NCBI RefSeq assembly: GCF_000223985.1
Contig: NZ_AFWV01000020.1
Span: 1 to 64,000, forward strand
Direction of reading: 5' to 3'
Length of the DNA stretch: 64,000 bases
Origin: Thiocapsa marina 5811
Lineage (GTDB): Bacteria > Pseudomonadota > Gammaproteobacteria > Chromatiales > Chromatiaceae
Shown: positions 20,745-38,580 of the stretch, piece after piece
Layout of the letters: each line of letters begins with the position of its first letter
Position numbering within the stretch: the first letter of the stretch is position 1
Program-made: the position numbers and the translations under genes
Notes under the pieces: model-generated
The model's input: only the letters and a program-made list of their open reading frames with translations
What the model was told of the DNA's origin: nothing
Databases searched by the model: none

Positions 20745-23438
20745 GTGCCTGAGACCGACCCCATCACATCGACCGAGTCGGCAGAGGACCGGACATCCGA
20801 TCCCGCGCCGACCTCGGAGACCGAGCGTCCGTCGGACAGGGCGTCGCCGCGGCGCTCCAAGCCCCTGGTGGTCGTCTCCTACGCCCGCGAAGACGAGAAC
20901 CTCAAGACGCAGATCGATCTCTATCTTCAGTCGGAGGTCAACATGGGTCGGTTCGACTATTGGTCGGACCGATCGATCGACGCCGGAAGGAACTACCAGC
21001 ACGAGATCGAGCGACATCTTCGGGAAGCCGATATCGCGATCCTCCTGGTGTCGCCCTATTTCTTCGCCTCGTCCTTCGTCACTCGGCATGAGCTTCCGAT
21101 GCTCTGTCGTCGCGCCGAGGATGGTTCGTGTGTCCTGATTCCGGTTCAGGCGAGGCCGATGGACCGGGAATCGACGGGCTGCCTGTATGACGGGCGCATC
21201 CAGTACTTCAGCCCGAACGGCGTGATCCAATGGGGCGCGAGGCCGACTTGGGCCTACGCGGATCTCAACGAGCAGCAGCGGCCTTACTTTCTCAAGGACC
21301 TGGTGAAGACCGTCCGCGAGACGCTGGAGAGGCGCCGGATCGCCGACCGGCACATTTCTTCGGACGATGAGCGTCGTCAAGAACACTCGAACTCCCCCGA
21401 GCGCCCGTCGCGGGAAGGCGCCGGGAGGAGCGAGCCTTCCGGTGACGATGGCCGCCCAGGGCCGTCGGGCATGCCGCCCGGCGGTTCCGGACCTGACGGA
21501 GTGCTCTCGGCCCCGTCCCCGCAATCGAACACGCGTCCGCGGCACCGGCCCTCGCCTTACTGGCTGCTCCTGGTCCTGGTGCCGATCGCGGCACTGTCCT
21601 GCCTTTGGCTGCCGTGGTGCTGCTGGATCTTGAACCGGAGCACCCTGGAGGTCTTGGTGTCCGACCAGCCGGTCGAGTCGGCGAGCGTCAGACTCTATCG
21701 AGACGGCCGGGTGTCTCGAGCCTTCACGATCGAATCCGGCTCCGAATCTCGGGTCACGATCCCGACACGCGAGCTTGACGGGGTCACTGCCGTCGCCATC
21801 GATATCGCCGCGCCGATCGATTACCTACCCTTGGCTGTTCCAGGGTTCGCCGATTCCGGGTGCCGCCATCGCGTGGACCTCGACGCCAAGACCCTCGTGC
21901 CGATGCCCCCGATGGTCGGCATCCCTGCCGGGGTCTTGAACAAGGGTATCCAGGACGACTCCTTTCCCATGCAACTGATCCGCGAGTACCAGGATCTCAA
22001 CACACGATTCGGTCCCGATATTCAGTTCGACGAGGGGTCGATCGCGGCTCTGCTCATGCGTCCCCCGCGCACGGTGACCCTCCCCGACTTCTATATCGAC
22101 GCGTATGAGGTCACCAACGCCGACTATTCGGCCTTTCTGAAATCGGGATCGACCGTCAAGCACCCGCAGGACCCGGCGCCATCGGACCGCGATCCGGCTT
22201 GGAGCGAAGGCGACGCGATGCTCAAGCAATCATTGGGGCAGCCGGATCAACCGGTATCGAGCGTGGATTTCTTCGATGCCTACGCCTACTGCGACTGGGC
22301 GGATCGGCGCCTGCCGACCGAGGATGAATGGGAGGCCGCCGCGCGAGGCTCGGACAGTCTCCTCTATCCTTGGGGCGATTCATTCGACGAGGCCTTCTTC
22401 AATCGAAACAACGGAGCTCGGAACGGTCCCCAGGCGGTCTCGACACTGGAACGACCCCGCGAGGGTGCACCCTTCGGCATGGAAGGAAATCTAGCGGAAT
22501 GGACGAGCACCGACGTCCCCGGCGGCAGGAAGGCCATGAAGGGTGCCGGGTGGGTCGCAAGCGCGATCGAGGGCAGAACCTCGGCGCTGACCTACGTCCG
22601 CCATGCGATGCCGCCCTCGAGCCCGATGCTGGACGTCGGCTTTCGGTGTGCGTCGGATAAACCGCCAGCAAAACAAGGCAGACCAATGATCAAGGTCCCG
22701 GCAGGCGCCTATCGGCTCGGTGGACCCGAATCGATCGTGCTCGCTTTCCTCGGTCGCTTGCGCGATGACTTCGGAATCGATGTGTCCGCCGGGATCATGC
22801 AAGCCGCGACACCGGGATCCGTCGGTCTTTCGGCCTATCGAATCGATCAGCACGAGGTCACGAATCGACAGTACGGTGCCTTCCTGGATTATTTGAAAGC
22901 GACGGAGACAATGGAATTTGCGCATCCGGAGCAACCCGTCGAGCATGATCACGAGCCGAAGCTCTGGGGCGACCATAGACACAATGCATCCGATCAACCG
23001 GTTGTCGGGGTCGACTGGTATAACGCCTACGCCTTTCTCGGTTGGATCGGCAAACGTCTGCCGACGGCCAACGAGTGGGAGCGCGCCGCGCGCTCGTCGG
23101 ACCATCGTTGGTACCCCTGGGGCGATCGATTCGATCCATCCTGGACGGTTGTTCGGGAGTCTCGAGCCACGCAAGCCGCTTCAGTCGGTTCGGCCGAGCG
23201 TGACAGGTCGCCATTCGACGTTCTCGATCTCGCCGGCAATGTCCAGGAATGGACCTCCACCGAAGGCGAGAACAGCTCCAAGGAGTCGCGAACACTGGTC
23301 CTGAAAGGTGGAAGCTGGGCGGAGCCGGGGATCCTGAATGCCCTGATCCCTTACCGCGGCCCGATCGCGAGCCCGACCTATCGCGGGTCGGAAGTGGGTT
23401 TCAGAGGTGCCGCGGATGCGTCGGCGCCTGATCTCTGA
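20745..23438 (+). CDS. TIR domain - transmembrane - two FGE-sulfatase-like domains
   Basis: 897 residues from a GTG with AGGAG about 15 bases upstream. TIR-like domain at 39-195 (LVVVSYAREDENLKTQI; FDYWSDRSIDAG; DIAILLVSPYFFASSF); the Glu in FVTRHELPML sits where NAD-cleaving TIR domains carry their catalytic Glu. Acidic/proline-rich linker; transmembrane helix 272-296; a short beta domain; FGE-like domain 1 (about 390-645; IDAYEVTNADYSAFL, RRLPTEDEWEAAARG) and 2 (about 650-890; IDQHEVTNRQYGAFL, GNVQEWTST, LKGGSW, VGFRGA). Topology: TIR inside, FGE domains outside. No TR-like variable repeat is evident at the end, and the C-terminus differs from the DGR targets. Inference: receptor-like protein with an NADase-type effector. 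Confidence 0.85.
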   Translation: MPETDPITSTESAEDRTSDPAPTSETERPSDRASPRRSKPLVVVSYAREDENLKTQIDLYLQSEVNMGRFDYWSDRSIDAGRNYQHEIERHLREADIAILLVSPYFFASSFVTRHELPMLCRRAEDGSCVLIPVQARPMDRESTGCLYDGRIQYFSPNGVIQWGARPTWAYADLNEQQRPYFLKDLVKTVRETLERRRIADRHISSDDERRQEHSNSPERPSREGAGRSEPSGDDGRPGPSGMPPGGSGPDGVLSAPSPQSNTRPRHRPSPYWLLLVLVPIAALSCLWLPWCCWILNRSTLEVLVSDQPVESASVRLYRDGRVSRAFTIESGSESRVTIPTRELDGVTAVAIDIAAPIDYLPLAVPGFADSGCRHRVDLDAKTLVPMPPMVGIPAGVLNKGIQDDSFPMQLIREYQDLNTRFGPDIQFDEGSIAALLMRPPRTVTLPDFYIDAYEVTNADYSAFLKSGSTVKHPQDPAPSDRDPAWSEGDAMLKQSLGQPDQPVSSVDFFDAYAYCDWADRRLPTEDEWEAAARGSDSLLYPWGDSFDEAFFNRNNGARNGPQAVSTLERPREGAPFGMEGNLAEWTSTDVPGGRKAMKGAGWVASAIEGRTSALTYVRHAMPPSSPMLDVGFRCASDKPPAKQGRPMIKVPAGAYRLGGPESIVLAFLGRLRDDFGIDVSAGIMQAATPGSVGLSAYRIDQHEVTNRQYGAFLDYLKATETMEFAHPEQPVEHDHEPKLWGDHRHNASDQPVVGVDWYNAYAFLGWIGKRLPTANEWERAARSSDHRWYPWGDRFDPSWTVVRESRATQAASVGSAERDRSPFDVLDLAGNVQEWTSTEGENSSKESRTLVLKGGSWAEPGILNALIPYRGPIASPTYRGSEVGFRGAADASAPDL

Positions 23439-23594: not shown

Positions 23595-26174
23595 TCAAGG
23601 CATGCTCTCCATCACCCTTTTCCAGGCTTGCTTGATCTCCCCGCCCGCGGCGCGCACCTGATCCGTCACTGCCTTGATCGGATTCGCGGGCTCGCTCTGC
23701 CGTGGCGGCGATGTCTCCGGGGCTCTCGACGACGTCGGCGACGTCGGGGGCTCCAAGGCGGCCATGGCCTCGCCCTGCCGTTTTGACTCCACAGGAGTAC
23801 TGCTCGCCGTCCTCGGCTGTTCAGCTCGGGCCGGCGCGGGTTTGGGTCTCGGGCGACTCAGCTCCGACACTTGTTTCTTGAGACGCCCGAGGCTCGCGAG
23901 CTGGTTGTCGGAGCCGTAGTCGGCGAGCCGGTCGGCCTTCTGAAGGTTGTGGCGGGCGGCGTCGAGACTCCCCCGCCCGATGGACGTCTCTGCCCAGCCG
24001 AGATACCGCTGCAGCATCTCGCCGCGCAGCGCGAGCGCCTCCGCGTTCGCCGGATCGAGATCCAGCACGCGGCTGGTCCAGTGAAAGGCGCTCTGATCCG
24101 CAGGGGTCAGGAGGTATTGTTTCTCCAATGCCGAACGCGCCTCTTGAAGCCAAGCAGCGATCGGGGTCTCGAACGGATCGGGCTCGGTCGGCACAGCGGC
24201 CGGCACGGCATTGAGGGTCAGGGGTTCCGACGACGCGCCAGCGGCAGGATGGTCCTGCGGCTGCGCGAGCTCGGGAGCGACCTGAGTCGTGCCGCCGGGG
24301 GCAGCTCCCCGGCTGCCCGGGGGCGGCGACTCGCTCCCGGGCGCGATCGGTGATGGAGCGGGCGCGCGGATCAGAGTCGATTCTGAAAGCGCTTGCACCT
24401 GTTGCGGGTCTGTCGAGGCAGGGTCGTTGGACTCCGTCCTCTCGATCGGGGGCACCACCGACGCGGCCTGCGTCACTCCCGAGCCCGTTGATCCCGGATC
24501 AGCCGGACGGGGCGACCCCGCAACGAGGCCGGCCAAGACAGCCGATCCAACAGTCTCGTTCGGCCGCGCCTCGGCTTCGGAGATGCTGGTCGTCGCGGGC
24601 TCGCTCGCTCCCTGCTCGGCGGCCTCGTTCGTCGACGTCGCAGCGCCCATGCCGATTTCCGGACTGGACCACACCGTTGCGGGCACCGAGGGCATCGTCG
24701 GGGGCGGTATCGTTCCCGAACCACCGATCTGATCGAGCGAACCCGCCAATTCAGTGATCCTGGACGACAAGGCTTGGTCACCATCATGGACGACGCGCGT
24801 CATGTCCTCGATCCGCTGCAGCCCGATGACCATGCTTCCCGCGCCCGTCGCCAGGAGCAGCAGGCCCACGCCCGCTCCGATCCCTGCCCAGCGTGGCCAG
24901 GCGACAGGCCCGGTCCCGAGGCGATTCGCATCGCGCCGAACAGTGTCGAGACTCGTCCTGAGCTCGTGCCCGATCCGATCCAGAAGATCGACGATCCGTG
25001 CATCGACGTGCGCTCGGGTGTCGTCGGCGAGACCGCGGTCCGCCTGCATCCGGGTGTTCAGGTCCTCGCGAAGACCCGCGAGAATGTCGCGGAGCTGCTC
25101 CAATTGACGTGTCATGCCCGCAACACCCTGCTCCACACGACCGCCGATGGTCTCTCCTTGTAGCCTGATGCGCTCGATCTCGGCGGCCTTCGCTTCCACC
25201 GAGCCGCGCAGCATCTCCATGCTCGCGGTGACTCGGCCGGACAACGGGGAGATCGCACGCCCCAGCCCATCGATCTGGGATACCAGCCCCCCTCCGAAGT
25301 CCGTAAGGGTCCGGTCGAGCCCGGCGACGGTCTCCTGCAGTCGACCCTTGAGCTCTGCGATGTCCATGTCGACCGCCCCCGCGGCCGGCCCGCCTCCCCA
25401 GGTCGTGATGACGCCCAAGCCAAGCTCCTCGAGGCCGGAGAAAAAGCTCTCCTCACTGCGTTGCACAAACGACATCACCAGCATGGCCACGAGACTCGCC
25501 GTCAAGCCGAGCAGCGTGGTGTCGAACGCGAACGACAGGCCCCCGGCGACCTCGGCCAAGGCACCCTTGACCTTCTGAATGTCCTCGACGCCCATATCCG
25601 CCGTGAGGAAACTTGAGAACTCGGCCACCGCGAGCCCGATGCCGATCACGGTCCCGATGAAACCCACGATCGGCATGGCCCAAATGTAGACCTTCGCCAG
25701 CGTATAGCTTCCGGCCGCTTGGTCGGCATCGATCTCGAGTTGATGGCGATAATGCTCATGCGCGCGCTCTCGACTTCCCGGGAGATTCAGTTGCCGGGCG
25801 AGATCGGCGATCCGCACGAATGCAAAACGCGCGCGAGAGGCATCCTTGTCGACCGCATTCAGGACGCAATGGATCTCTTGATCCCGGCAGCCCTCCGTGA
25901 TCTTGCGTAGCTCGCCCAACTGCCGCTGCCTCATCCAATCCAGCAATGCCTTGACACCCACATCCAGCATGGTCCACATCCACAAGAGGATGATCGTGAA
26001 AGGCACCGCATTCTCGATCATCGAGTCCGACGGACTGATGAGGCGTCGCAAAAAGCTGCCGGAGTCGAATGTCATGGAAACATAGTAAGCGACGACGAAA
26101 GCGCCGATGACACTCAGAATCCCGAGCAGTACTTGCGGAGCTCCGCGCTCGCCTAGGTGCTTTGCATTCTTCAT
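23595..26174 (-). CDS. ExbB/MotA/TolQ-like proton channel subunit with long coiled-coil and TPR-like tail
   Basis: 859 residues; ATG at 26174 with GGAGG six bases upstream. Transmembrane helices near 15-35, 55-75, 168-190 and 215-237; the last two hold the family signature (GFIGTVIGIGLA; LSFAFDTTLLGLTASLVAMLV). Then a long coiled coil (about 270-420, with phases like MDIAELKGRLQETVAG), another transmembrane helix (about 430-452), a proline/serine-rich linker (500-650), a TPR-like module (660-760; VLDLDPANAEALALRGEM) and a low-complexity end. Known: ExbB/MotA proteins form pentameric proton channels; ZorA of Zorya also has a channel plus a long helical tail. Here the tail re-enters the membrane. 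Last gene of an eight-gene run, downstream of its two ExbD-like partners. Confidence 0.85.
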   Translation of the reverse strand: MKNAKHLGERGAPQVLLGILSVIGAFVVAYYVSMTFDSGSFLRRLISPSDSMIENAVPFTIILLWMWTMLDVGVKALLDWMRQRQLGELRKITEGCRDQEIHCVLNAVDKDASRARFAFVRIADLARQLNLPGSRERAHEHYRHQLEIDADQAAGSYTLAKVYIWAMPIVGFIGTVIGIGLAVAEFSSFLTADMGVEDIQKVKGALAEVAGGLSFAFDTTLLGLTASLVAMLVMSFVQRSEESFFSGLEELGLGVITTWGGGPAAGAVDMDIAELKGRLQETVAGLDRTLTDFGGGLVSQIDGLGRAISPLSGRVTASMEMLRGSVEAKAAEIERIRLQGETIGGRVEQGVAGMTRQLEQLRDILAGLREDLNTRMQADRGLADDTRAHVDARIVDLLDRIGHELRTSLDTVRRDANRLGTGPVAWPRWAGIGAGVGLLLLATGAGSMVIGLQRIEDMTRVVHDGDQALSSRITELAGSLDQIGGSGTIPPPTMPSVPATVWSSPEIGMGAATSTNEAAEQGASEPATTSISEAEARPNETVGSAVLAGLVAGSPRPADPGSTGSGVTQAASVVPPIERTESNDPASTDPQQVQALSESTLIRAPAPSPIAPGSESPPPGSRGAAPGGTTQVAPELAQPQDHPAAGASSEPLTLNAVPAAVPTEPDPFETPIAAWLQEARSALEKQYLLTPADQSAFHWTSRVLDLDPANAEALALRGEMLQRYLGWAETSIGRGSLDAARHNLQKADRLADYGSDNQLASLGRLKKQVSELSRPRPKPAPARAEQPRTASSTPVESKRQGEAMAALEPPTSPTSSRAPETSPPRQSEPANPIKAVTDQVRAAGGEIKQAWKRVMESMP

Positions 26175-26237
26175 CGAAAGTCCTCCGGCATGAAAAAACT
26201 CCGTGATATCACGATACCCTTCAGCACGACGACCGAC

Positions 26238-26921
26238 TCACTGAATCCCCGCCTTCAGCGGCCCGCTCTCCCCGCCGCCCAGACCAACACGTGCTGGAAA
26301 AGTGAAATCCAGTGCGTCCCAGCCCGTGAGAAATCCCGCGTCCAATGCAACCTGCCGGGCCGCTCGGAAGAGCTCGATGCTCTCCGGCGCAACCAAGAAT
26401 CGGACCCAGGTCTCTTTGGAATCCATATGACGCAGTCTCTCGAGAAACCGTAAGGTTTCGATCTCAGTAGGATTTTGATCGACACCCCTATTGCTTGACT
26501 TCTCGTTCACGATTAACACCCAGGATCGCGTACTTGCGGGAAAGTTGAATGTTGTCGAGACCTCCATCGAATAGTTGAACCATTCGTCGCTGATCCTCTT
26601 CTTATTGAAGGCGTCCGCCAACTCCGGCATCGTCTCATACGTTACGTCCGATTCGCTCAGCAGCTTGACGAATTCGGCGACCGGCGCATCGATATCCATG
26701 GTGCGGAGACCCTCCTCCGAAACCAGGACCTGTCGGAAGCGCATCCCTTCATCGGGCTCTTTCCAGATCGGGCGAAACAATTGAAACTGGATGTCCGAGC
26801 TTTCGATCGCACTGAACATCGCTACAACGACCATGATTCCGACGGTGCATGTCAGAATGTCCATCAGAGAATCGAGTTGAAGCAGTTGACTTCGCTTCGA
26901 CCGGCGTATTGATCTAGTCAT
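26238..26921 (-). CDS. ExbD-like single-pass protein 2 (keeps the membrane Asp)
   Basis: 227 residues. A basic N-terminus (RSIRRSKRSQ) is followed by one transmembrane helix (LDSLMDILTCTVGIMVVVAM) with an Asp at the position of the proton-carrying Asp of ExbD/TolR/MotB. The rest is a periplasmic domain with a second beta-alpha unit (RSWVLIVNEKS; WVRFLVAPESIELF). The gene overlaps the previous ExbD-like gene by eight bases. No OmpA peptidoglycan-binding motif is present, unlike MotB or ZorB. Inference: stator partner of the ExbB-like channel. Confidence 0.75.
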   Translation of the reverse strand: MTRSIRRSKRSQLLQLDSLMDILTCTVGIMVVVAMFSAIESSDIQFQLFRPIWKEPDEGMRFRQVLVSEEGLRTMDIDAPVAEFVKLLSESDVTYETMPELADAFNKKRISDEWFNYSMEVSTTFNFPASTRSWVLIVNEKSSNRGVDQNPTEIETLRFLERLRHMDSKETWVRFLVAPESIELFRAARQVALDAGFLTGWDALDFTFPARVGLGGGESGPLKAGIQ

Positions 26922-27453
26922 TGTGCTCTCTCACCTGAATCGTCTTCCACTCTTTCAGAAGCGGCTCGTAACCGAGATCAAGGTTCAAGTGGGAGCTGAA
27001 ATACGCTTGCAGATTGGAAAAGCTCTCGAAACCTTCGGGGCGAACCAAGATGACGAAGTAGCGGGATTCCGAGTCTTTGACGATCTCCTTGATCTCGCGC
27101 TCCAACTCGGAGTCCTGGATCGATCTGTCCAAATAGCGATAGGTTTCCTCCCAATTCCGAATACTCGAAAGGCTGCGATGGATACGGACTTCGGACTTGG
27201 AAGGGTGCAGTACCAAGCGCGCCCCATCCCACTCGAGATATGTGGGAATCTTCTTGTTCACGTTGCACGAGATGTCACCTGTCCCGCAAACCATTGCATC
27301 GATAACGACGTTTCCACTCGATAGCGACAGTGTTGCCAATGCACTCATGATGAACACCAAGACGCCTAACGTAGCGATCAAGATGTTGAACATCGGAAAC
27401 AACGAGATTCCAAGGTCGTCCCTATCTCCCAGACGGGCCATCGTCACCCCCAT
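26914..27453 (-). CDS. ExbD-like single-pass protein 1 (Asn in place of the membrane Asp)
   Basis: 179 residues from 27453; an ATG at 27441 preceded by GGGGGTG is an alternative. N-terminal transmembrane helix FPMFNILIATLGVLVFIM with Asn where ExbD proteins have Asp (P-L-V-D). The periplasmic part holds two Cys (MVCGTGDISCNV) that could form a disulfide, and an ExbD-like RYFVILVRPEGFESF unit. It overlaps the next gene and follows the RelA/SLOG/RyR gene by 77 bases. Inference: regulatory or structural stator subunit that cannot relay protons itself. Confidence 0.7.
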   Translation of the reverse strand: MGVTMARLGDRDDLGISLFPMFNILIATLGVLVFIMSALATLSLSSGNVVIDAMVCGTGDISCNVNKKIPTYLEWDGARLVLHPSKSEVRIHRSLSSIRNWEETYRYLDRSIQDSELEREIKEIVKDSESRYFVILVRPEGFESFSNLQAYFSSHLNLDLGYEPLLKEWKTIQVREHND

Positions 27454-27529
27454 GAGTCAATTGATCCAATCGCTTCGGCACGGTCTGGTCGGCGGGCTTT
27501 CTGCAACGATGCCGAACGGCCGGGCCGCT

Positions 27530-30500
27530 CTACTGCCGCAACCACTCGAACCCTGCGGTCCCGTCGACAGCAAACACGGCAAAACCCAGCTCCTTTAGCA
27601 CCGACGGGACCCGCCTGGCGTAGTCGCGGTCCTTGTCGCGCGACTCTTCGTCGAGGTCTTCCCAGCGGATGAGATCGGGGTGGCGCTTGTTGGGCTCGTC
27701 CTTCACCTCGGCGAGGCGCCAGCCGTCGAGGAGCTTCTGCACGCACCAGCGCCCGTGCTCCATCTCGGCCATGATCTCGATTTGCTCGGAGGTCAGGGTC
27801 TCGACCGTGGCCACGCCGTCGGGGACCTGGTCGGAGGGGACGAGACGCAGCCCCACGGCGCGCAGTTGCTCGATGCTGAAGTCGACGCGATCGAGGATCA
27901 GGGCCTTCAGGTCCTCGCGGAGCCGGTCCCAGGGTTGATTCCGATCCTCGTCGGCACCGGCCTTGATTCGCCTGGACTCGGCGTTGCGCGCGTGCTCGAT
28001 GCGGGCGGCCGCCTCGCGCTGGTCCGGGGTGAGGACGGCCGCCGAGGAGGGTCGATTGACGAAGAGCCGGACGGTCTGCGGATCGTAGGGGAGCGCGATC
28101 AGATTCGGGTGCCCGCTCCAGTCCGGGTCCTCGAGGATCTCCTCGGCGGCGCGTCCACTGCCTCGGAGGACGCCCACCTTCGCGCCCATCATCAGGGCGA
28201 GCCGATACTCGAGTCCGGCGACGGTCCCGCCGCCGATGCCGATCACGCGCACCTCGGCCGGGCGGACGCCTTGGCTCAGGAGATCCGCCCAGACCTGCAC
28301 GGGACCCGGGGGCGAGAAGCCGTTGCCCGGGTGATAGTAGAGACGATAGGCAGGATGACGGTCGTGTTCGGCCGGCATGCTCTCGGGCAGGATCGCCAGC
28401 TTCAGGATGGCGCCCGGACGAGTCTCGGGAAGGTTCCCGACCATTTCGGCAATGCCGTTGCGTGTGCCGCCGCCGAAGAGTGTTCCGGAGAAGCCTCGAA
28501 AGGCATCTTCGAGCAAGGGCCGATACTCTTGCATCCGCGTCTCGTCCTCCCGCGAGCAGCCGCCGACGACAATGACGACCTGATCGCGGGCCGGCTCGCT
28601 CGAATCGGACTCGCCATGGACCCCGGTCTGGGGCTTGGGCTGCCCCCTCGCCGGCCCGCGGAGGACCGGGCAGTCCGGATGACCCACCTCGGATTCGAGC
28701 GCGTGCTGCGCCGCCGCGGCGGCCTCGCGTCGGACCTGGACCTCGGCGGTCGCCCGCTCGAGCGCGGCTCGCGCGGCATCGAACTTGGACTGCTCGGCTT
28801 CGAGGCCGACCTCGCGAGTCTCGGCCTTCTTCAGGGCGTTCTGCAGTGCCTCTTCGGCGGCATCGAGGTCCTTTCGCCGGTCGATGACCGCCTGCTCGGC
28901 CGCCCGCCATTGCGCCTCGAGCTTGACGACACGGGCGACGACGAGAAACCGCTCGAGTGCAGTCCAGGCGCCGTCCGGACCCTCGTCGAGTGCCTCGCGC
29001 AGTCGCCGGGCCTGGTCCAGGGCGGTCTCGATCGGGGTCTCCGTGTGACTGAGCTCGACCGCGCGTGCATAGGCGGCGAGCGCCTCGAAAGGCCGACTCA
29101 GGAACAGCAGAAAACAGCCGATATCGTAATGAGCCCAGGGGAGATAGATCCCCAAGGCGGCACGCTCCCGGCAGCGTTGGACGGCCTTGGCCAGGGTCGG
29201 GCGCATCGGGGCGACGAAGCCGAGATCGTGGTCGTGCTCGGCGGTGAGCTGGAGAAAGCCACGGACCGCCCGCGGCTCGTCCGGGTTGATCTCGAACGCC
29301 TTGCCGTAGCCGAGGCGCGCCGGCGTCCTCCGCCCTTCTTCATCCCGGGTCTCGGCCAGCGCAATGACGGCGTCGGCACTGGTCAGGTCCAGGCCGGTGG
29401 CCCGCAGCAGATCGCGGCGTGCGACGGCGCGCTCCCCCAGACGCCAGTTGGCGATCCCGTAGTCGAGCAGCAGGTTCATGGCGCGCGGATCGCGCAGATC
29501 ATCCAGGACGGCGCGGGCGCGGCGCTGATCGCCCGGGGTCTTGGCTGATTCGTACGCGGCGATCGCGGCGTCCAACGCGGCCGAGCGGGTGGGCCAATGC
29601 CCGTCCGGCTTCGGCCAGGGGAGGGCCTCCCAGGCGGCGACGAAGGGCTCCAGGATCTCGACCACATCCGCCCAACGCTCCAGCGAGACGGCGAGACGCG
29701 CCGCTTTCAGCGCCAGACCGAGATTGCCGGGATCGAACGCGAGCACCTGACGGTCCTTCGCGAGCTCGTCACCCATGCGATCCGGCGGGAGATAGGTGCC
29801 GAAATACTCCCGATAGCCATCCACGGCGGCGATGGCGCGGGCGAAGCTCTCGTCGGCATCCTCCAGCACGGCCGCGATGCGAAGCAAGTCGCGCTTGAGG
29901 TTGGCCGGGAGATTGAAGGCACTCTTGTAGACCCGGTCGTGATAGAGGCTCGCCCAGGCATGCTGGAGCAGCGAGCGCACCTGGATCTCCATCCGGTACT
30001 TCGGTCCAGGCGCATAGGATTTGCCGTCGCATTCCTCGTGGGAACGACGCTCGTGCAGACGTGCGACGATGCGCGCGACCTCCGGGTCCTGCGCCTGCTC
30101 CGCCATAACGGCGGCGATGTCCTCGGTCAGCTCACCCGGCTTCAACGCGACGATGAAGTGCACGGACCGATAGCCGAACTCCCCGACACCGAGCCGCGCG
30201 GCCGTATCCTCGCTGTTGGCCTCGTCGATCAGGAAGTGCTTGCGGATGAAGGCACAGATCGGGGCGATAGCGTCGGTGGACTCGGTGATCACCCGCGCCC
30301 CGCAGAGATCCGTCATGCTGTTGACCGGATCGCGGTAGCTGGCCTGCTTGCGGATGGTCTTCTCGGCAAAGCTGGCCAACTCCTTCACCCGGGCTTGCAC
30401 GATAGCGCTGATCCCGAGCTCGCCCGCGGCACGCTTGAGGACACGCTCGACGATCGCGGCAAAGAGCCGGTAGTCCGGCCGCACGGCCTTGAAGGCCGCG

Positions 30501-30544
30501 ACATCCGCCTGGTACTTCGCGATGAGGGACGCCGATTCAGGCAT
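27530..30544 (-). CDS. RelA/SpoT synthetase-like - TPR - coiled coil - SLOG - RyR protein
   Basis: 1004 residues from the ATG at 30544, which has GGAG nine bases upstream. Residues 40-215: RelA/SpoT nucleotidyltransferase-like domain (DLCGARVI; GYRSVHF; EIQVRSLLQHAWASLYHD) with the catalytic Glu of E-x-Q-x-R kept. Helical/TPR-like region to about 560, coiled coil 570-645. SLOG/LSDAT-like Rossmann domain about 665-830 (VVIVVGGCSREDE; GTLFGGGTRNGIAE; IGIGGGTVAGLEYRLAL). C-terminal RyR domain about 905-990 (MAEMEHGRWCVQKLLDGW; KRHPDLIRWEDL). Known: SLOG domains bind nucleotide-derived ligands, and RyR domains occur with them in nucleotide-centred conflict systems. Inference: makes and/or senses a nucleotide signal; adjacent Nudix and channel genes are probable partners. 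Confidence 0.85.
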   Translation of the reverse strand: MPESASLIAKYQADVAAFKAVRPDYRLFAAIVERVLKRAAGELGISAIVQARVKELASFAEKTIRKQASYRDPVNSMTDLCGARVITESTDAIAPICAFIRKHFLIDEANSEDTAARLGVGEFGYRSVHFIVALKPGELTEDIAAVMAEQAQDPEVARIVARLHERRSHEECDGKSYAPGPKYRMEIQVRSLLQHAWASLYHDRVYKSAFNLPANLKRDLLRIAAVLEDADESFARAIAAVDGYREYFGTYLPPDRMGDELAKDRQVLAFDPGNLGLALKAARLAVSLERWADVVEILEPFVAAWEALPWPKPDGHWPTRSAALDAAIAAYESAKTPGDQRRARAVLDDLRDPRAMNLLLDYGIANWRLGERAVARRDLLRATGLDLTSADAVIALAETRDEEGRRTPARLGYGKAFEINPDEPRAVRGFLQLTAEHDHDLGFVAPMRPTLAKAVQRCRERAALGIYLPWAHYDIGCFLLFLSRPFEALAAYARAVELSHTETPIETALDQARRLREALDEGPDGAWTALERFLVVARVVKLEAQWRAAEQAVIDRRKDLDAAEEALQNALKKAETREVGLEAEQSKFDAARAALERATAEVQVRREAAAAAQHALESEVGHPDCPVLRGPARGQPKPQTGVHGESDSSEPARDQVVIVVGGCSREDETRMQEYRPLLEDAFRGFSGTLFGGGTRNGIAEMVGNLPETRPGAILKLAILPESMPAEHDRHPAYRLYYHPGNGFSPPGPVQVWADLLSQGVRPAEVRVIGIGGGTVAGLEYRLALMMGAKVGVLRGSGRAAEEILEDPDWSGHPNLIALPYDPQTVRLFVNRPSSAAVLTPDQREAAARIEHARNAESRRIKAGADEDRNQPWDRLREDLKALILDRVDFSIEQLRAVGLRLVPSDQVPDGVATVETLTSEQIEIMAEMEHGRWCVQKLLDGWRLAEVKDEPNKRHPDLIRWEDLDEESRDKDRDYARRVPSVLKELGFAVFAVDGTAGFEWLRQ

Positions 30545-30591
30545 GGTGTGACTCCGAGGGAATAGGCCGCTTGAGGTCGCTTTCGGAAGGG

Positions 30592-31092
30592 TCATGTCCA
30601 ACCCGATGGCCTGTCGCCGGCGTCCGGATGAGCGCACGGCGCAGGTCCCCGCTCGGCATCGACCGATGCCCAGTAACGTCCGAGCGCCGCATCGTTGCCG
30701 AACACCAGGGCCGGGGCGTCCGGCTGATCTCGCGCGATCCAGGCCGACGCGCTCGATTCATGGTTGATCTTCATCTCGCCCGCGGTGCGGCACACGAAGT
30801 ATAGATTGATACAGTGCATCTCCCCCGATTCCGAGGGCGGACTGTCCTGGTAGAACAAGAACTCGGCCGCCAGACAGTCGAGTCCGGTCTCTTCCCTCAG
30901 CTCGTCGCGCACGGCCTGCTCGACCGTGACCCCATAGTCCACCTTCCCGCCCGGCAGGCACCACTCACCATGCGCATGACCGGTGCCGTCGCGCCGAAGG
31001 ATCAAGACGCGCTCCCGGTCGTCGGTCACGATCATGCGCACGATCGGGACCGGGAAAGCGGTCTTGGCGGCATATTTTGAGACGGGTTCCAT
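30592..31092 (-). CDS. Nudix hydrolase
   Basis: 166 residues. The ATG at 31092 is preceded by AGGTGG at proper spacing; a GTG three codons upstream is the alternative. The Nudix box is clear (GGKVDYGVTVEQAVRDELRE then ETGL) but departs from consensus: Val replaces the first Glu (GET to GVT) and Asp precedes ELREE where Arg is usual. The metal-binding REExGU-type Glu residues are kept. Known: Nudix enzymes cleave nucleoside diphosphates linked to another group. It lies 48 bases upstream of the RelA/SLOG/RyR gene on the same strand. Inference: limits or processes that protein's nucleotide signal. Confidence 0.85.
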   Translation of the reverse strand: MEPVSKYAAKTAFPVPIVRMIVTDDRERVLILRRDGTGHAHGEWCLPGGKVDYGVTVEQAVRDELREETGLDCLAAEFLFYQDSPPSESGEMHCINLYFVCRTAGEMKINHESSASAWIARDQPDAPALVFGNDAALGRYWASVDAERGPAPCAHPDAGDRPSGWT

Positions 31093-31206
31093 GATGGCCA
31101 CCTGATGCTTGGAATTCGCACGGGATAGGGCTTCCGCGAGGCGGTGGAGGACCAGAGGATGGCGCGCGGCTTCGCCACGGCGAGCCCTGCTCCGGTCCGC
31201 ACTTAC

Positions 31207-31665
31207 TCAAGGACTCTCGAACAGCATCCAGTTGCTCTGACCGGTGTGCCCCGTGCCGGAGTCACACGCATCGAGACGCATGACATACCAGCCGGACTCA
31301 AGGTCCCATTGCTCGGCAATATCGCGAATCGGCCTGGGATAATTGGCGGCGGAGTCGACGACCAAAAACCCAATCTTAGCGATCTGGATCCGACCATCCT
31401 GCGCCTCAGGCCCTTTAGCCCGCGCCACTGACGCGGGGATCAATCGATCCTGAGATGGCTCGATATCCAACTGAAGACTATCCGGCGATAGGTGCAATCG
31501 ACACACCCCCGGGGTGCTCGGATCGATGCCTACCCACTCGGTTTCGGGTTCCTCGGAGGTGGCCCGAGAATCCGATTCCCTCTCCGAACCAGCGATAGCC
31601 CCCGCAAAATTCCACTGTACAAGCAGCAACGCAATCGCGCCCGCCAACCACGTCGATACTCTCAT
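31207..31665 (-). CDS. Secreted protein of unknown function
   Basis: 152 residues from the ATG at 31665 (GGAGG seven bases upstream), starting with a signal peptide (MRVSTWLAGAIALLLVQWNF) and an acidic linker (RESDSRATSEEPETEW). The mature part contains two Cys (GVCRLHL; LDACDSG), a beta-strand set (IQIAKIGFLVVDS) and ends WMLFESP. Family not recognised. Third gene of the minus-strand run; probably periplasmic, with one disulfide. Confidence 0.7.
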   Translation of the reverse strand: MRVSTWLAGAIALLLVQWNFAGAIAGSERESDSRATSEEPETEWVGIDPSTPGVCRLHLSPDSLQLDIEPSQDRLIPASVARAKGPEAQDGRIQIAKIGFLVVDSAANYPRPIRDIAEQWDLESGWYVMRLDACDSGTGHTGQSNWMLFESP

Positions 31666-31753
31666 CTCGATCCCTCCGCGCTTAAGCCATGCTCTCAGTT
31701 CCGCCTCCCTGGCCTCCATGCAACGGTCCTCCGATGGAGCCGCCGATGCTGAA

Positions 31754-32368
31754 TCATTGCTTCCGACTCGGCAGTGTTTGCAGCATTTGCAGCGTCGCCT
31801 GATGCACCGCGCTTTCTTCCATCACGCCCTTGACCAGCATCCCCGCGATGCCGCCGTAGCCGATTTGAGCGACCTCGCGATTCCTCCAAGCGACGCTGCC
31901 TGAAGCCTTGTCGAAGAGATTACCCGACATCTCGGCGGTTCCGGTACTGCCGAAGGTGAGCTTCGAAGCGCTGTCCTCCACGACGAACAGCAAGACCCAG
32001 CGTGCCGAGGGCGGCGGCAATGCGCTGATGAACTCCGGGGTCGGATTCTCGAGCGACTCGCGAGAGACCTTCGATAACAACGACCTGTTTCGCTCCGTCG
32101 CGTAAGAATAGCCCTTCTTTTTCAAGTCGTGCTCGATCAGTCGGGTAATGTTCTTATCCAGCTTTAGGTCTTTTGATTGATTCAGCCGATGATCCAGGAT
32201 CGGCAGCAACGCGACGGAATCCACCGCGGCGGGATTGAACCCCGCGCTCGAGTAATCTGCTGGTCTTGTCGTCGCACACCCGGAAACCAATGACACCATT
32301 GCGATTGTCGCGATCAGATTGATGAGTCCGGCCCGACCTGAGATCCATTCGCCTCTTGTCTGATTCAT
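31754..32368 (-). CDS. Lipoprotein (lipobox LVSGC)
   Basis: 204 residues from the ATG at 32368 with AGGAG upstream. Signal with lipobox LVSGCATT, then an alpha/beta domain (VDSVALLPILDHRLNQSKDL; LIEHDLKKKGYSYATE; ARWVLLFVVEDSASKL) that resembles the small outer-membrane lipoproteins with a TolB-N or DUF799-like fold. The Ser after the lipid Cys position is replaced by Ala, with no Asp at +2, so outer-membrane sorting is expected. Second gene of the run. Inference: outer-membrane end of the channel machine. Confidence 0.75.
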   Translation of the reverse strand: MNQTRGEWISGRAGLINLIATIAMVSLVSGCATTRPADYSSAGFNPAAVDSVALLPILDHRLNQSKDLKLDKNITRLIEHDLKKKGYSYATERNRSLLSKVSRESLENPTPEFISALPPPSARWVLLFVVEDSASKLTFGSTGTAEMSGNLFDKASGSVAWRNREVAQIGYGGIAGMLVKGVMEESAVHQATLQMLQTLPSRKQ

Positions 32369-32396
32369 TTCTTGACTCCTATTGTGGGATGATGTT

Positions 32397-33038
32397 TTAG
32401 AAGGCGGCGAAAAGCCGAGGAACCAACTCCGCAAGTGCAGACTTGGCTCCGTTTTTCGCTGTACGAGATTGGACGGCATGACTCCAGGTAACCTTGTCGG
32501 CTTCGAGATCGTAAAGGTGGCATTCCAGAAGCGTCCGCGAGCTATTGGACTTGATCACGCCGCTGGTCGGATCCCATAAACCGCCCGGTCCGACATAGAC
32601 CCGATACCGACAAAACAGCAGATGAGAGGCGCCTCGGCTCGCATTCCATTCCCGAAGCTTCAGCAGCTGCTCATCGCGTGCTTCACCCGACTGCACTCGG
32701 ATGTCGCGATACATGCGCGCGACATCGAAGGATGGGTGAGCGTTGGCTGTGAACTCGCTTGTCCCGGAGCGCGCGCGGGGCCGGGTCGCGAGCTCCGATC
32801 CGAGCGAGCTCAGGAGAAGGGTTCGAAGCTCGGCGTCCTTCGGGTCGTTTGCCGGCAAGGCATTGCCGGTATTCGAATCGATGATGTCCAGCCATGGATC
32901 CATCAGAACGAGTTTCTCGATCCCACCTGAATACCTCTGGACCTCCGCTCGCTCGACCGCTGAGGACGCGCATCCCGCCGCAAGAAGACCCGACAGCAGC
33001 AAACAGGCGGTGAGCCGAACGTTGTTGGGTTGACTCAT
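32397..33038 (-). CDS. Lipoprotein (lipobox LAAGC), first gene of the eight-gene run
   Basis: 213 residues from the ATG at 33038 with AGGAG at -16. Signal and lipobox (LLLSGLLAAGCASS), then an alpha/beta domain (VLMDPWLDIIDSNTG; ASHLLFCRYRVYVGPGG; LLECHLYDLEADKVTWSHAV). The repeated 'class of strand plus W' ending is similar to the next lipoprotein (SGSVAWRN), suggesting the same fold. It is divergent from the zinc-ribbon operon, so the operon promoter should lie between 33038 and 33311; no clear -35/-10 pair was found there. Confidence 0.75.
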   Translation of the reverse strand: MSQPNNVRLTACLLLSGLLAAGCASSAVERAEVQRYSGGIEKLVLMDPWLDIIDSNTGNALPANDPKDAELRTLLLSSLGSELATRPRARSGTSEFTANAHPSFDVARMYRDIRVQSGEARDEQLLKLREWNASRGASHLLFCRYRVYVGPGGLWDPTSGVIKSNSSRTLLECHLYDLEADKVTWSHAVQSRTAKNGAKSALAELVPRLFAAF

Positions 33039-35793: not shown

Positions 35794-36126
35794 CGCCAAG
35801 GAACGATTCAAAACCACATGAACAGGTAGGTTCGGCAAAGAGCAGCGTGCCCAAACCGCCCCGGCATCGCTGGGAGCAGTTGGGCACGCTACGTTTTGCC
35901 CAGCCGACATCCGACGCCGGTCACGCATCGGTACACCTGGTTCTTGAGCCGTTACTAACCGATGAGAGACTCATCGCCGAAGGCCCCGGGAACGACCCAA
36001 CGGGGCCGACCGCGCGGCGAGCACCGCGGGTGTGTCGGACTCGACGGCGATTCGGACGGGGAAGGAAGAAGAGAGAAAGAGAAAAAGAAAAAAGAAAAAA
36101 AGGGTTAAAGCCTCAAAGGAAAAAGG
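35794..36126. other. Intergenic stretch with hairpin and polypurine tract
   Basis: No gene. A perfect 7-bp stem hairpin (CGATGAG-AGA-CTCATCG) lies at 35960-35976. A run of about 45 bases of almost only A and G lies at 36058-36107, ending near the motif AAAGCCTCAAAGGAAAAAGG just 3' of VR1. A similar but shorter A-rich stretch and the same motif stand 3' of VR2 (39962-40020). Confidence 0.6.
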
Positions 36127-38379
36127 TCAAAGGTCCTGGGCAAGACGCACGCCGAGGTCGTCGATGCGGAAGTCGGGGTTGTACCTGAGACGGAGCGACA
36201 CACGCAGGAACCACGGAGAGTAGCTCCAGGAACCGCCGCGCAACACCCGGCGAGGGTCAGGGCAATTTTCCTGCCACACTGAACCGACCGCCGGGGCGCC
36301 GACATAATCATCGTGCCAGCAGTCCTGCACCCACTCCCAGACGTTCCCCGCCGTATCGTGGAGCCCAAAGGCGTTGGCCTGGAAGGAACCGACCGGAGCG
36401 GTTACCCGAGCGTCCCAGCGGCTCCCGCAGCCGTCACAGTTGGCCCGGCCCGTCCCGATCGACGCGCCCCACCAGTAGGGGGGGCGGGTGCCCGCCCGCG
36501 CGGCATACTCCCATTCGGCCTCGCTCGGCAGACGATAGGGCGTGCCGGCATGGCCCGCGTTCAACCGCCCGAGAAAGGCCTGGACGTCGTTCCAGGAGAC
36601 CCTCTCCACCGGGCGGTCGTCGCCTGTGAACCGGGAGGGGTTCTTACCCATCACCGCGCGCCACTGCGCCTGGGTGACCTCGTACTTGCCGATGCGGAAG
36701 GAGGCGATCCGCACCTCATAGGCCGGCTTCTCAGCTTCGGAGCAACTCTTATCGCCCGGGCTGCATCCCATCCGGAAGGTGCCGCCCGGAATCTCGATCA
36801 TCGTGTCCGCGAGGCCACGCAAGATCTCCGCTTTGGCCTTGGCTTCAGCCTCCGCTTTAGCCTTCGCTTCAGCCTCCGCTTTGGCCTTGGCTTCAGCCTC
36901 CGCTTTGACCTTGACCGCAGCCTCGGCCGCCGCCGCCAGCCGTGTCCGCGTTGTCGCATCCACGTAGCCCGTCGCCTCCAGCCCCACCTGCGCCTGAAAC
37001 GCCCGCACCGCCGCGCGCTCGGACGCCGCAAGCCCATCCCCGCCCGCACCCGCCGCGTGACCGACCAACTCAAGCTCCGCCCGGAGCACCGCACGCGCCG
37101 CCCCGTCCAACATCAAGGCGGCCTCGCGCTCCGCCGGCGTCAGCGGGCGGAGCGTGAAACCGGCGGCCCCGGGACGGTGCACGCTTACCACCACGATCTG
37201 TTCCTTCGCTGTGTAGCCCTTGCCACGCACCCCGACGCGCCGCTCACCCGCCGTAATCGCCTCGCCCTCGAACGGGACCTCCGGCGTCGCCGCGCCCACC
37301 CGCACCCCGTCCACCCACACCTCAGCCGGGCGGTCCACCGCCACACGCAACCGGCCCGTCAAGAGCACCGGCGGCGGCTCGGGGGGCGCTGTATCGGAGA
37401 CGGGACCGCCTTGCTGCGCCGCGCGCACCTTCTCGACACTGGTGAAGATCGGCACGCTCGCCACCAGGCGCACGCCGGTCAGGGCCTCGGGCGGGCGCGC
37501 GAGGAGCGGCCACAGCCGCGCCTCGGCCAGCAGCGGCGCATCCGCCGGACTGCGCGCATCGCCGCCGCGCGCCACACCGAGCAGCGGCCGGCCGGGCCGC
37601 TCGGGATCCTCGGCCTCCAGCACCCATTCGGCGGCGTTGCCGAGCAGGTCGTGAAGACCCAGCGGATTGGCCTGACGGGTGCCGATCGGCTGCACCGCCC
37701 CGCGCGCGTTGGCCGCGCTCCAGACCTCGGCCGCCCCCGCGCGCGCGTCCGCCGCTCCGAAGACCTCCGCCGCCACGGCCAGACCGCCGCGCGCGGCATA
37801 CTCCCATTCCGCGGCGCTCGGCAGCCGCAGCGCGGCCGGGACACCATCGACCCGCGGCAGGCAGGGCCCGGGCTTGGGCTCGGCATCGCGACAGGCGGGC
37901 AGGACCGCGGCCTGGGTCGCCAGCCAGGCGGACACCTGCTCGGACAGGATCAGGGCCTCGGCGAAGCTCAGCAGCACCGGACGCTCGCCCGCGGCCTCGG
38001 GGGACACCTCGGGCTCGGGACAGGCACCGCCCGCGCCCGCCCGCGCCTGGCGCTCCGTCACCTCGTATTTGCCGACCAACAAGGCCGTCGCGCCGGCGCC
38101 GTCACTGAAGGCGCCGCTCACCGCGTAGCCCTGCTCGGGGCCGGGCGTGCTCACCCGGCGCAACGCCAAGGCACCGCCGCAGGGCAGCGGCACCAGCAGG
38201 TCGTCGGGTTGGGCCTGCGGGTTGTAGGCCGCCGCCGGCCAGGTGACGGCACCGGGCGGCGGATCGGCAGCGGCCGGGCCGGCAATGGTCGGATCGGCGG
38301 CGAGGACACCGACCGGTGCAACGGCGGCGAGCAACAGCAGGACCGCCGGCAGCCGCCCGGAGATCCAGGATCGCGGCAC
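36127..38379 (-). CDS. Variable protein 1 of the DGR: exported FGE-sulfatase-like protein
   Basis: About 750 residues from a GTG at 38379 that opens a signal peptide (PAVLLLLAAVAPVGVLAA). The frame is open through the TR up to an ATG at 38721, but the TR need not be translated, so the start is uncertain. Order: signal; N-terminal FGE-like domain (about 40-300; LPLPCGGALALR, GLHDLLGNAAEWVL); PEGA-like domain (GRLRVAVDRPAEVWVDG); one PG_binding_1-like module (AFQAQVGLEATGYVDATTRTRL); an AKAEAEAKAK coiled coil; C-terminal FGE domain (IPGGTFRMG; FRIGKYEVTQAQW; RLPSEAEWEYAARAG; GNVWEWVQDCW) ending in VR1. It lacks a middle membrane helix, so the diversified surface is expected outside the cytoplasm. 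Confidence 0.85.
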   Translation of the reverse strand: MPRSWISGRLPAVLLLLAAVAPVGVLAADPTIAGPAAADPPPGAVTWPAAAYNPQAQPDDLLVPLPCGGALALRRVSTPGPEQGYAVSGAFSDGAGATALLVGKYEVTERQARAGAGGACPEPEVSPEAAGERPVLLSFAEALILSEQVSAWLATQAAVLPACRDAEPKPGPCLPRVDGVPAALRLPSAAEWEYAARGGLAVAAEVFGAADARAGAAEVWSAANARGAVQPIGTRQANPLGLHDLLGNAAEWVLEAEDPERPGRPLLGVARGGDARSPADAPLLAEARLWPLLARPPEALTGVRLVASVPIFTSVEKVRAAQQGGPVSDTAPPEPPPVLLTGRLRVAVDRPAEVWVDGVRVGAATPEVPFEGEAITAGERRVGVRGKGYTAKEQIVVVSVHRPGAAGFTLRPLTPAEREAALMLDGAARAVLRAELELVGHAAGAGGDGLAASERAAVRAFQAQVGLEATGYVDATTRTRLAAAAEAAVKVKAEAEAKAKAEAEAKAKAEAEAKAKAEILRGLADTMIEIPGGTFRMGCSPGDKSCSEAEKPAYEVRIASFRIGKYEVTQAQWRAVMGKNPSRFTGDDRPVERVSWNDVQAFLGRLNAGHAGTPYRLPSEAEWEYAARAGTRPPYWWGASIGTGRANCDGCGSRWDARVTAPVGSFQANAFGLHDTAGNVWEWVQDCWHDDYVGAPAVGSVWQENCPDPRRVLRGGSWSYSPWFLRVSLRLRYNPDFRIDDLGVRLAQDL
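36136..36254 (-). repeat. Variable repeat 1 (VR1)
   Basis: 119 bp, no gaps against the TR at 38581-38699. I count 20 differences; 18 fall on TR adenines (coding strand) and 2 on other bases. Encodes the RGGSWSYSPWFLRVSLRLRY segment to GVRLAQDL at the protein's C-terminus. Confidence 0.9.
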
Positions 38380-38580
38380 CGCGACGCCGGGTGAAACGGG
38401 GCGGCCCTTTCGCTCCGGGCTACTCGCGCCGCCCCCCACCGTCCTGGCACAACTATTTGTCCGCTCCGCCCTGACCAGGCTGGAGACAGGCTCATGGACA
38501 CCCGCGCACCAGACCCCCGCCGACCTTGACCGCCGGGGCTCCGGGCCGAGACGCCCGCCGATGGGCGCCGCGCGGGCGGA

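What the first reader, a model, noticed from the sequence alone, without database searches (positions are those of the whole stretch)
23595..33038. Eight-gene operon linking a RelA/SpoT-SLOG-RyR protein and a Nudix enzyme to an ExbB/ExbD channel
Seen: one minus-strand run with small gaps or overlaps: two lipoproteins, a secreted Cys protein, Nudix hydrolase, RelA/SpoT-TPR-SLOG-RyR, two ExbD-like proteins, ExbB-like channel with long coiled coil. Known: SLOG and RyR domains mark nucleotide-centred conflict systems; ExbB/MotA channels with long tails occur in Zorya. Inference: a nucleotide signal made or sensed in the cytoplasm gates or drives a proton-powered envelope machine reaching the outer membrane through lipoproteins. 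I know of no described system with this gene set.
Basis: partly seen in the sequence, partly recalled or inferred. Interest (0 to 1): 0.9.

Follow-up and report, generated by a model that had tools for sequence, protein, structure and literature searches.

The report
Nucleotide-signalling module beside a membrane motor
A bacterium carries a gene cluster in which a protein built from the same sensor parts as the animal TRPM2 and ryanodine-receptor channels, paired with a nucleotide-cutting enzyme, sits next to genes for a proton-motor-like membrane complex, which suggests a bacterial defence signal that acts on the membrane.

Summary
The eight genes are real, but they look like three separately conserved blocks rather than one conserved operon. 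Core: a RelA/SpoT-TPR-SLOG-RyR protein ("RSR") plus a Nudix hydrolase. I collected 20 full-length RSR loci from several phyla; 16 of 20 have a nearby Nudix gene (6 of 7 loci held out from profile building; 0 of 36 control stretches). Six of 20 carry an RCK/TrkA-type channel-like protein, five an AAA-RyR protein, seven a TIR protein. Structure comparison matches the SLOG part to TRPM2 MHR1/2, the RyR part to human RyR Repeat12 and the RelA part to small alarmone synthetases. Second block: ExbB plus two paralogous small membrane proteins, found on two cyanobacterial plasmids near defence genes and repeatedly in Planctomycetota, but beside none of the 20 other RSRs. Third block: two lipoproteins, found paired on one relative's short contig. 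I read the core as a defence-like nucleotide-signalling module with exchangeable partners; here a motor-like cassette lies where some genomes have an RCK channel. Signal, motor function and any outer-membrane link are untested, and the RSR-ExbB link rests on one genome. Nine literature searches found no such combination; the key 2015 SLOG/RyR paper was not available.

The parts
27530..30544 (-). RSR: RelA/SpoT synthetase domain + TPR + coiled coil + SLOG (TRPM-like) + RyR domain
   Evidence: Pfam; alignment of 14 homologues with the RelA/SpoT residues D80, G83, R85, Y126, H130, E187, Q189 invariant; AlphaFold model pLDDT 81; fold matches to TRPM2, RyR Repeat12 and alarmone synthetases
30592..31092 (-). 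Nudix hydrolase, core partner of RSR
   Evidence: Pfam NUDIX 9.7e-19; the Nudix-box glutamates E64, E67, E68 invariant in 11 rows; near RSR in 16 of 20 other loci
23595..26174 (-). ExbB/MotA-type channel protein with coiled coil, a fifth hydrophobic segment (residues 432-450) and a long Pro/Ser-rich tail
   Evidence: Pfam MotA_ExbB; homologues with the trio gene order; hydrophobic segments
26238..26921 (-). ExbD-like protein D2; membrane Asp (D21) conserved in 8 of 8 rows
   Evidence: alignments, paralogy with D1; no ExbD family match
26914..27453 (-). ExbD-like protein D1; Asn in place of the membrane Asp
   Evidence: alignments: Asp in only 2 of 10 D1 rows
31207..31719 (-). secreted protein with cysteines, no family and no relative in the loci compared; membership doubtful
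   Evidence: no match in the RSR loci or in the relative's contig
31754..32368 (-). lipoprotein Lp2 (start at an internal Met); membership doubtful
   Evidence: 54% identical copy next to an Lp1 copy on a relative's contig
32397..33038 (-). lipoprotein Lp1; membership doubtful
   Evidence: 33% identical copy next to Lp2 on the same contig
20745..23438 (+). TIR domain + two FGE/C-type-lectin-like domains, convergent with ExbB; possible signal source, not in the same transcript
   Evidence: Pfam TIR_2 1.6e-11, FGE-sulfatase 1.9e-71; PADLOC ThsB1 2.2e-16; TIR genes in 7 of 20 RSR loci, but 1 of 7 held-out ones

Best explanation
The core is a two-gene nucleotide-signalling conflict module. RSR uses its SLOG and RyR domains to sense an adenine- or ADP-ribose-type nucleotide, such as one made by the TIR enzymes that lie near some RSRs. 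Sensing switches on its RelA/SpoT domain, which makes an alarmone-type product (or pyrophosphorylates RNA); the TPR part couples the domains. The Nudix enzyme removes the signal or the product and so sets a threshold and resets the system. The output is a membrane response delivered by exchangeable partners: RCK/TrkA channel-like or SLATT-like proteins elsewhere (AAA-RyR proteins are a further, soluble kind of partner), and in this genome an ExbB + D1 + D2 proton-channel or motor cassette. Opening or driving that cassette would dissipate or use the proton-motive force and stop infected or stressed cells. Shown: the domain architecture, intact catalytic motifs, the conserved RSR-Nudix link, the channel link in six other loci, conflict-type neighbours, and the independent conservation of the ExbB trio. 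Inferred: the ligand, the reaction, the direction of signalling, and that the ExbB trio is the effector of this RSR.
For: Nudix gene in 16 of 20 RSR loci, 14 of them within 165 bp or overlapping and the other two 0.9 and 1.35 kb away; held-out loci 6 of 7 against 0 of 36 control stretches, p 1e-6. Two of the first 11 Nudix rows look like another subfamily (23% and 26% identity), which suggests repeated recruitment. RCK/TrkA genes in 6 of 20 loci (held-out 3 of 7 against 1 of 36, p 0.010), on several branches of the RSR tree. Conflict genes nearby: TIR 7 of 20, DUF4062 11 of 20, 0 of 57 control stretches each; SLATT-like in L029 and L063, both slightly under the Pfam cut-off. Structure: SLOG against TRPM2 Z 15.7 (196 aligned), RyR part against 6uhi Z 16.0 and against human RyR3 Repeat12 with AMP-PCP Z 15.2, RelA part against B. 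subtilis alarmone synthetase with pppGpp Z 12.8. PADLOC candidates match RSR (PDC-S33, 9.9e-14) and Nudix (PDC-S07, 2.4e-11). The ExbB trio lies beside type III-B CRISPR and viperin genes in Anabaena, and beside SLATT, helicase and methylase genes in Microcystis.
Against: The ExbB trio is beside RSR only in this window: 0 of 20 other loci and 0 matches in 13 RSR genomes (an empty search without a positive control). The NUDIX gene near the Microcystis trio is weak (4.2e-5) and does not match the RSR-type Nudix profile. The RSR-to-D1 gap is 76 bp and no transcript data exist. No ligand or product was tested; a RelA/SpoT domain with all motifs may make several products. Four of 20 RSR loci have no Nudix match in the stretch held, and L035 has no partner gene by these profiles beyond a 64-residue DUF4062 fragment. 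TIR, DUF4062 and TrkA profiles were partly built from the loci counted (held-out TIR 1 of 7, DUF4062 2 of 7). None of 55 relatives of this genome has RSR; their best matches (1.2e-17) are to the RyR end only.
Confidence: 0.42

Rival explanations
1. Chance stacking in a defence-rich island: RSR-Nudix, the ExbB trio and the lipoprotein pair are three unrelated acquisitions that happen to point the same way, and the trio has its own job.
For: Each block is found without the others; neighbouring genes include other conflict-type genes and a diversity-generating retroelement.
Against: Same strand, short gaps, a good ribosome-site sequence before ExbB by eye; six other RSR loci carry membrane channel-like genes, in five directly after Nudix.
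Confidence: 0.35
2. RSR-Nudix is a toxin-antitoxin-like pair: the RelA/SpoT domain is a toxic small-alarmone-synthetase enzyme released by SLOG/RyR sensing, and Nudix is its antidote that destroys the product. Membrane genes are incidental.
For: RelA/SpoT motifs intact; Nudix often overlaps or abuts RSR within 20 bases; the best-scoring solved Nudix relatives are MutT/NudI-type enzymes.
Against: RCK channel-like and AAA-RyR partners recur (6 and 5 of 20); four RSR loci lack a Nudix match in the stretch held; TPR-SLOG-RyR makes the protein far larger than known toxSAS enzymes (recalled).
Confidence: 0.2
3. A housekeeping envelope-stress or starvation regulator with an alarmone output, not a defence system.
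For: RelA/SpoT and ExbB families have housekeeping members (established knowledge); RSR is not rare in one phylum, 9 of 82 genomes.
Against: Patchy elsewhere: 1 further genome of 398 in the own-phylum sample (single sequence at 1e-30), 2 of 247 and 1 of 297 in two other phyla, the known ones included (only the best 3 candidates a genome were scored); the two copies of genome G450 lie far apart on the tree; conflict genes around.
Confidence: 0.1

Closest known systems
SLOG/RyR nucleotide-centric conflict systems of Burroughs et al. 2015 (paper not held; known here from passages of citing papers PMC13143021 and PMC7272460, and recall)
   Same: SLOG domains as nucleotide sensors in conflict systems; RyR, Nudix and SLATT associations are recalled
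   Different: RelA/SpoT-TPR-SLOG-RyR with a dedicated Nudix as a recurrent pair, and its RCK-channel or ExbB partners, could not be checked against that paper
Thoeris (TIR ThsB + SLOG effector ThsA)
   Same: TIR gene nearby that matches ThsB1; SLOG sensor
   Different: the SLOG protein carries RelA/SpoT, TPR and RyR instead of SIR2 or Macro; a Nudix partner; the TIR is on the opposite strand here and has no match in 13 of 20 RSR loci
TRPM2 channel/chanzyme of animals
   Same: the same kinds of element: MHR1/2-type SLOG (fold match Z up to 15.7), Nudix, ion channel
   Different: separate proteins; the channel is RCK-type or ExbB, not a TRP channel; an added RelA/SpoT enzyme; the Nudix is MutT-like by sequence
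Zorya (ZorAB)
   Same: MotA/ExbB-family protein with a long tail in a defence-like context
   Different: ZorA models weak (E 0.005-0.09); two small ExbD-like partners; no ZorB/C/D/E model matched
GAP1-N2 GTPase-centric conflict systems (Kaur et al. 2020, PMC7159879, section 29 read whole, other passages seen)
   Same: the ExbB-D1-D2 gene order beside a GAP1-N2/GAP1-M protein and a GYF-domain protein in one Planctomycetota locus, L095
   Different: no GAP1 match in the window genes scanned; that section does not mention an ExbB trio

Membership tests
RelA/SpoT-type (p)ppGpp synthetase domain | conserved synthetase residues (DxxGxR, GYxSxH-type, ExQ) | tested here: met
   D80, G83, R85, G125, Y126, H130, E187, Q189 invariant in 14 rows; the Arg of GYRS varies; fold match to a B. 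subtilis small alarmone synthetase Z 12.8
RelA/SpoT-type (p)ppGpp synthetase domain | product is (p)ppGpp | not testable with these tools
   needs enzymology
SLOG, TRPM/LSDAT type | sequence match to the family model | tested here: inconclusive
   LSDAT_prok 19.9 bits, E 0.0005, cut-off 25.4
SLOG, TRPM/LSDAT type | fold | tested here: met
   ten TRPM2 rows at Z 13.0-15.7, 187-198 residues aligned; TM1055 (LOG-type) Z 15.9 is tied
RyR domain | sequence and fold | tested here: met
   PF02026 1.2e-11; animal RyR chains at E 1e-31 by profile; Z 16.0
Zorya | ZorA-type match | tested here: inconclusive
   E 0.005-0.09
Zorya | ZorB with OmpA-like domain plus ZorC/D or ZorE | tested here: not met
   no such match among the eight genes and the TIR gene
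Thoeris | ThsA (SIR2- or Macro-containing SLOG protein) next to ThsB (TIR) | tested here: not met
   RSR has no SIR2 or Macro match and no hydrophobic membrane segment
ExbD/TolR | family profile match | tested here: inconclusive
   no family hit for the window proteins, none among the families shown for their relatives (lists capped); hhalign 28% and 0.65%; membrane Asp in D2 only
MotA/TolQ/ExbB | family profile match and channel motifs | tested here: met
   PF01618 35.5 bits, cut-off 22.9; GFIGTVxGI and FDTTLL invariant in 3 rows

The most novel reading that the evidence does not exclude
A bacterial 'split TRPM2/RyR' signalling system: an ADP-ribose-class signal, sensed by SLOG and RyR domains on an alarmone synthetase and cleared by a dedicated Nudix enzyme, gates interchangeable membrane effectors. 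In six of the 20 other loci this would be an RCK-type channel; here it is a proton motor with an asymmetric pair of ExbD-like axles, only one of which keeps the proton-carrying Asp.
Probability: 0.25. Interest if true: 0.88.

Novelty: new variant of a known kind. Interest (0 to 1): 0.65.

Why it matters
If the reading holds, bacteria use the same kinds of part as the human TRPM2 channel (SLOG sensor, Nudix, channel), spread over separate genes, which would make the origin of TRPM and ryanodine-receptor regulation testable in bacteria. It would also tie alarmone-type enzymes to TIR-class immune signals, and add an uncharacterised double-ExbD-like motor cassette, found here in three phyla (Pseudomonadota, Cyanobacteriota, Planctomycetota), to possible defence effectors.

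Tried and rejected
Conserved eight-gene unit: rejected, no other RSR locus has ExbB, D1 or D2 or the lipoproteins or secreted protein. Phage or plasmid origin of RSR: tblastn in plasmids and phages hit only the RelA/SpoT part; the first viral-contig scan gave none and a second gave 8 loci matching only that part. ExbB and D2 scans of viral contigs: none. ExbD2 structure: folded alone, pLDDT 38, unusable, so not searched. Lp2: no solved structure better than E 0.11, no plasmid match. The RyR-domain proteins of relatives are other proteins of 470-809 aa that match only my RyR-bearing profiles, not the TrkA profile. Rows dropped before the count: L038, L039 and L040 (partial or RelA-only matches), L064 (a further RelA-TPR copy in G450), and L024 (same locus as L035). 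L063 and L025 come from one genome, G450. The tree has a misread row, L059 (frame error in my cut; very long branch), which I ignore. One search found nothing and had no positive control. Control stretches (starts of contigs C3, C10, C30 of 19 genomes) were chosen by number before looking; 36 of 57 are at least 10 kb. Some DUF4062 hits are short frames (95 and 64 residues). Literature: nine searches listed no paper that I recognised as describing RSR-Nudix-channel or the ExbB trio in defence; I read only passages, and the held library lacks the 2015 paper, so priority is not settled. Papers: PMC7159879 passages and section 29; PMC13143021, PMC12505986, PMC10907252 and PMC7272460 passages; others search listings with the start of the abstract only.
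Full report
OBSERVATION. The window holds eight minus-strand genes in the stated order: two lipoproteins (Lp1, Lp2), a secreted protein, a Nudix hydrolase, a 1,004-residue RelA/SpoT-TPR-SLOG-RyR protein (RSR), two small membrane proteins (D1, D2) and an ExbB/MotA-type protein. Pfam supports RelA_SpoT, RyR, NUDIX and MotA_ExbB; SLOG is below its cut-off, and the small membrane proteins, the secreted protein and the lipoproteins have no family. Gaps are 76 bp between RSR and D1, an 8-bp D1-D2 overlap, 63 bp between D2 and ExbB, 47 bp between Nudix and RSR, and over 100 bp between the secreted protein and Nudix. No promoter or terminator signal exceeds chance, so a single operon is an inference.

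RSR AND NUDIX ARE A CONSERVED PAIR. In the own family RSR is rare: none of 55 relatives matches beyond the RyR end, and one other genome of 398 in the own-phylum sample has it. A scan of genome contigs gave 16 loci, of which I kept 13 with full-length RSR; searches of three phyla gave 9 of 82, 1 of 297 and 2 of 247 genomes, those already known included, adding 7 loci. Of these 20 loci, 16 have a Nudix gene: 14 within 165 bp or overlapping, the others at 0.9 and 1.35 kb. The Nudix profile was built from the window and the first 13 loci, so the fair test is the 7 later loci: 6 of 7 against 0 of 36 control stretches of at least 10 kb from the same genomes, p 1e-6. Two of the first 11 Nudix rows look like another subfamily (23% and 26% identity to the window's), as if a Nudix had been recruited more than once.

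PARTNERS VARY. Six of 20 loci carry an RCK/TrkA-type protein (seven genes, L057 has two) with at least two hydrophobic segments before the TrkA-N domain, in five loci directly after Nudix. By eye the stretch where a potassium channel has its filter is not canonical, so 'channel-like' is as far as I go. Five loci have a full-length AAA-RyR protein, two a SLATT-like protein (slightly under the Pfam cut-off), seven a TIR protein (two of these TIR-PFK fusions), eleven a DUF4062 match, some in short frames; the three DUF4062 neighbours scanned (L028, L031, L033) are NACHT/STAND-type proteins. Control stretches had 1 of 57 with a TrkA match and 0 of 57 with TIR or DUF4062. These profiles were partly trained on the counted loci; in held-out loci TrkA is 3 of 7 (p 0.010), TIR 1 of 7, DUF4062 2 of 7. 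The tree puts the channel-bearing RSRs on several branches and the two copies of genome G450, L025 and L063, far apart, which suggests horizontal spread and partner exchange (one row misread, see Tried and rejected). The window's RSR groups with L025 and L026 (100/100).

WHAT RSR IS. In 14 aligned homologues the RelA/SpoT residues D80, G83, R85, Y126, H130, E187 and Q189 are invariant (numbering has one extra residue at the start). The AlphaFold model (pLDDT 81, pTM 0.75) matches solved structures part by part: residues 14-202 the B. subtilis small alarmone synthetase 1 with pppGpp (Z 12.8, 143 aligned, 26% identity); 621-834 TRPM2 MHR1/2, including entries with ADP-ribose ligands (Z up to 15.7, 196 aligned, 14%), tied with the LOG-type TM1055 (Z 15.9); 819-995 RyR repeats, among them human RyR3 Repeat12 with AMP-PCP (Z 15.2) and a Bacteroides/human RyR chimera (Z 16.0, 23%). 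The RSR profile also reaches animal RyRs by sequence through its RyR part. So both putative sensor domains resemble domains that bind adenine nucleotides or ADP-ribose in solved structures. Ligand residues were not compared.

THE EXBB TRIO IS ANOTHER BLOCK. ExbB, D1 and D2 are found in the same order on plasmids of Anabaena cylindrica (beside a type III-B CRISPR module and, further on, viperin) and Microcystis aeruginosa (after SLATT, nucleotidyltransferase, helicase and methylase genes, before DUF559 and a weak NUDIX that does not match the RSR-type Nudix profile). ExbB relatives at E 1e-15 or better occur in 26 of 179 genomes of the phylum of G461, a Phycisphaeraceae record (Planctomycetota); of 12 flanks fetched, all have at least one D1- or D2-type match beside ExbB, and at least 8 have separate D1 and D2 matches. 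One of them, L095, also has a GAP1-N2/GAP1-M protein and a GYF-domain protein, known conflict-system parts (PMC7159879). None of these 14 loci has an RSR, RSR-type Nudix, TIR or TrkA match. ExbB was not found in 397 other genomes of the own-phylum sample (single sequence, 1e-12) or 115 others of the family (profile, 1e-20), and none of the 20 RSR loci has a trio match by profile. D1 and D2 are paralogues. The Asp at the place of ExbD D25/TolR D23 is present in 8 of 8 D2 rows but only 2 of 10 D1 rows (N, S or T in the others). If D1 and D2 pair as the two ExbD copies do in known 5:2 motors (established knowledge), the motor would be asymmetric. Their membership of the ExbD family is inconclusive. 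The window's ExbB has a fifth hydrophobic segment and a long tail that the cyanobacterial proteins lack.

LIPOPROTEINS. Lp2 has a relative in one of 145 other family genomes (54%), with an Lp1 relative (33%) just before it, on a 6.7 kb contig without RSR, Nudix or ExbB matches; whether that genome has RSR elsewhere was not tested. They are probably a third block.

MECHANISM. I favour a conflict module in which RSR senses an adenine/ADP-ribose-type nucleotide, acts as an alarmone-type synthetase, is limited by Nudix, and hands over to a membrane effector, here the ExbB trio. The convergent TIR-FGE gene is a candidate signal source: TIR domains make ADP-ribose-type signals (PMC10022894 and PMC11204291, starts of abstracts in search listings). 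The link between RSR and the trio rests on this one genome, and chance stacking is a serious rival.

SETTING. The window is a conflict-rich island: DUF4062-NACHT-TPR protein (6210-9719), ClpB-like AAA protein (17036-19441), several FGE proteins, and a diversity-generating retroelement with adenine-specific variation, the kind of association described for conflict systems of Thiohalocapsa (PMC10907252, passages read).

NOVELTY. Nine literature searches listed no paper with this combination, but the 2015 paper that defined SLOG/RyR systems was not available. I file it as a new variant of nucleotide-centred conflict systems.

Noticed in passing
window 36068-40259: Diversity-generating retroelement: reverse transcriptase (38718-39500), template repeat 38581-38701, variable repeats in FGE genes at 36136-36256 and 40028-40148; 18 of 21 and 15 of 20 differences fall at template adenines.
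   Followed up: partly
window 9984-10060, 10889-10998, 14326-14436: More distant matches (71-78%) to the template repeat in or near other FGE genes, possibly older or differently templated targets.
   Followed up: no
window 6210-9719: DUF4062-NACHT-TPR protein; DUF4062 matches lie in 11 of 20 RSR loci.
   Followed up: partly
window 17036-19441: ClpB/Cdc48-type double AAA protein; a similar gene lies beside RSR in L027.
   Followed up: no
window 740-6070: Long RHS-repeat protein.
   Followed up: no
L095 6751-16302: ExbB-D1-D2 trio in one run with a GAP1-N2 protein and a GYF-domain protein; L099 looks alike by the start of its upstream protein, not scanned.
   Followed up: partly
L025 13948-16089; L037 3507-5720: TIR domain fused to a phosphofructokinase-like domain near RSR.
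   Followed up: no
L029 15012-17696, L030 4541-7126, L032 7856-10462, L033 4798-7404, L063 3978-6767: Large AAA-RyR proteins whose N termini look sugar-kinase-like by eye; recurrent neighbours of RSR.
   Followed up: partly
L026 2186-9897: vWA-like lipoprotein (by eye), tubulin-like protein and unknown 837-aa protein in line upstream of RSR.
   Followed up: no
L064 144-3203: Third RSR-like gene in genome G450 with RelA-TPR but another N-terminal part and no RyR match.
   Followed up: no
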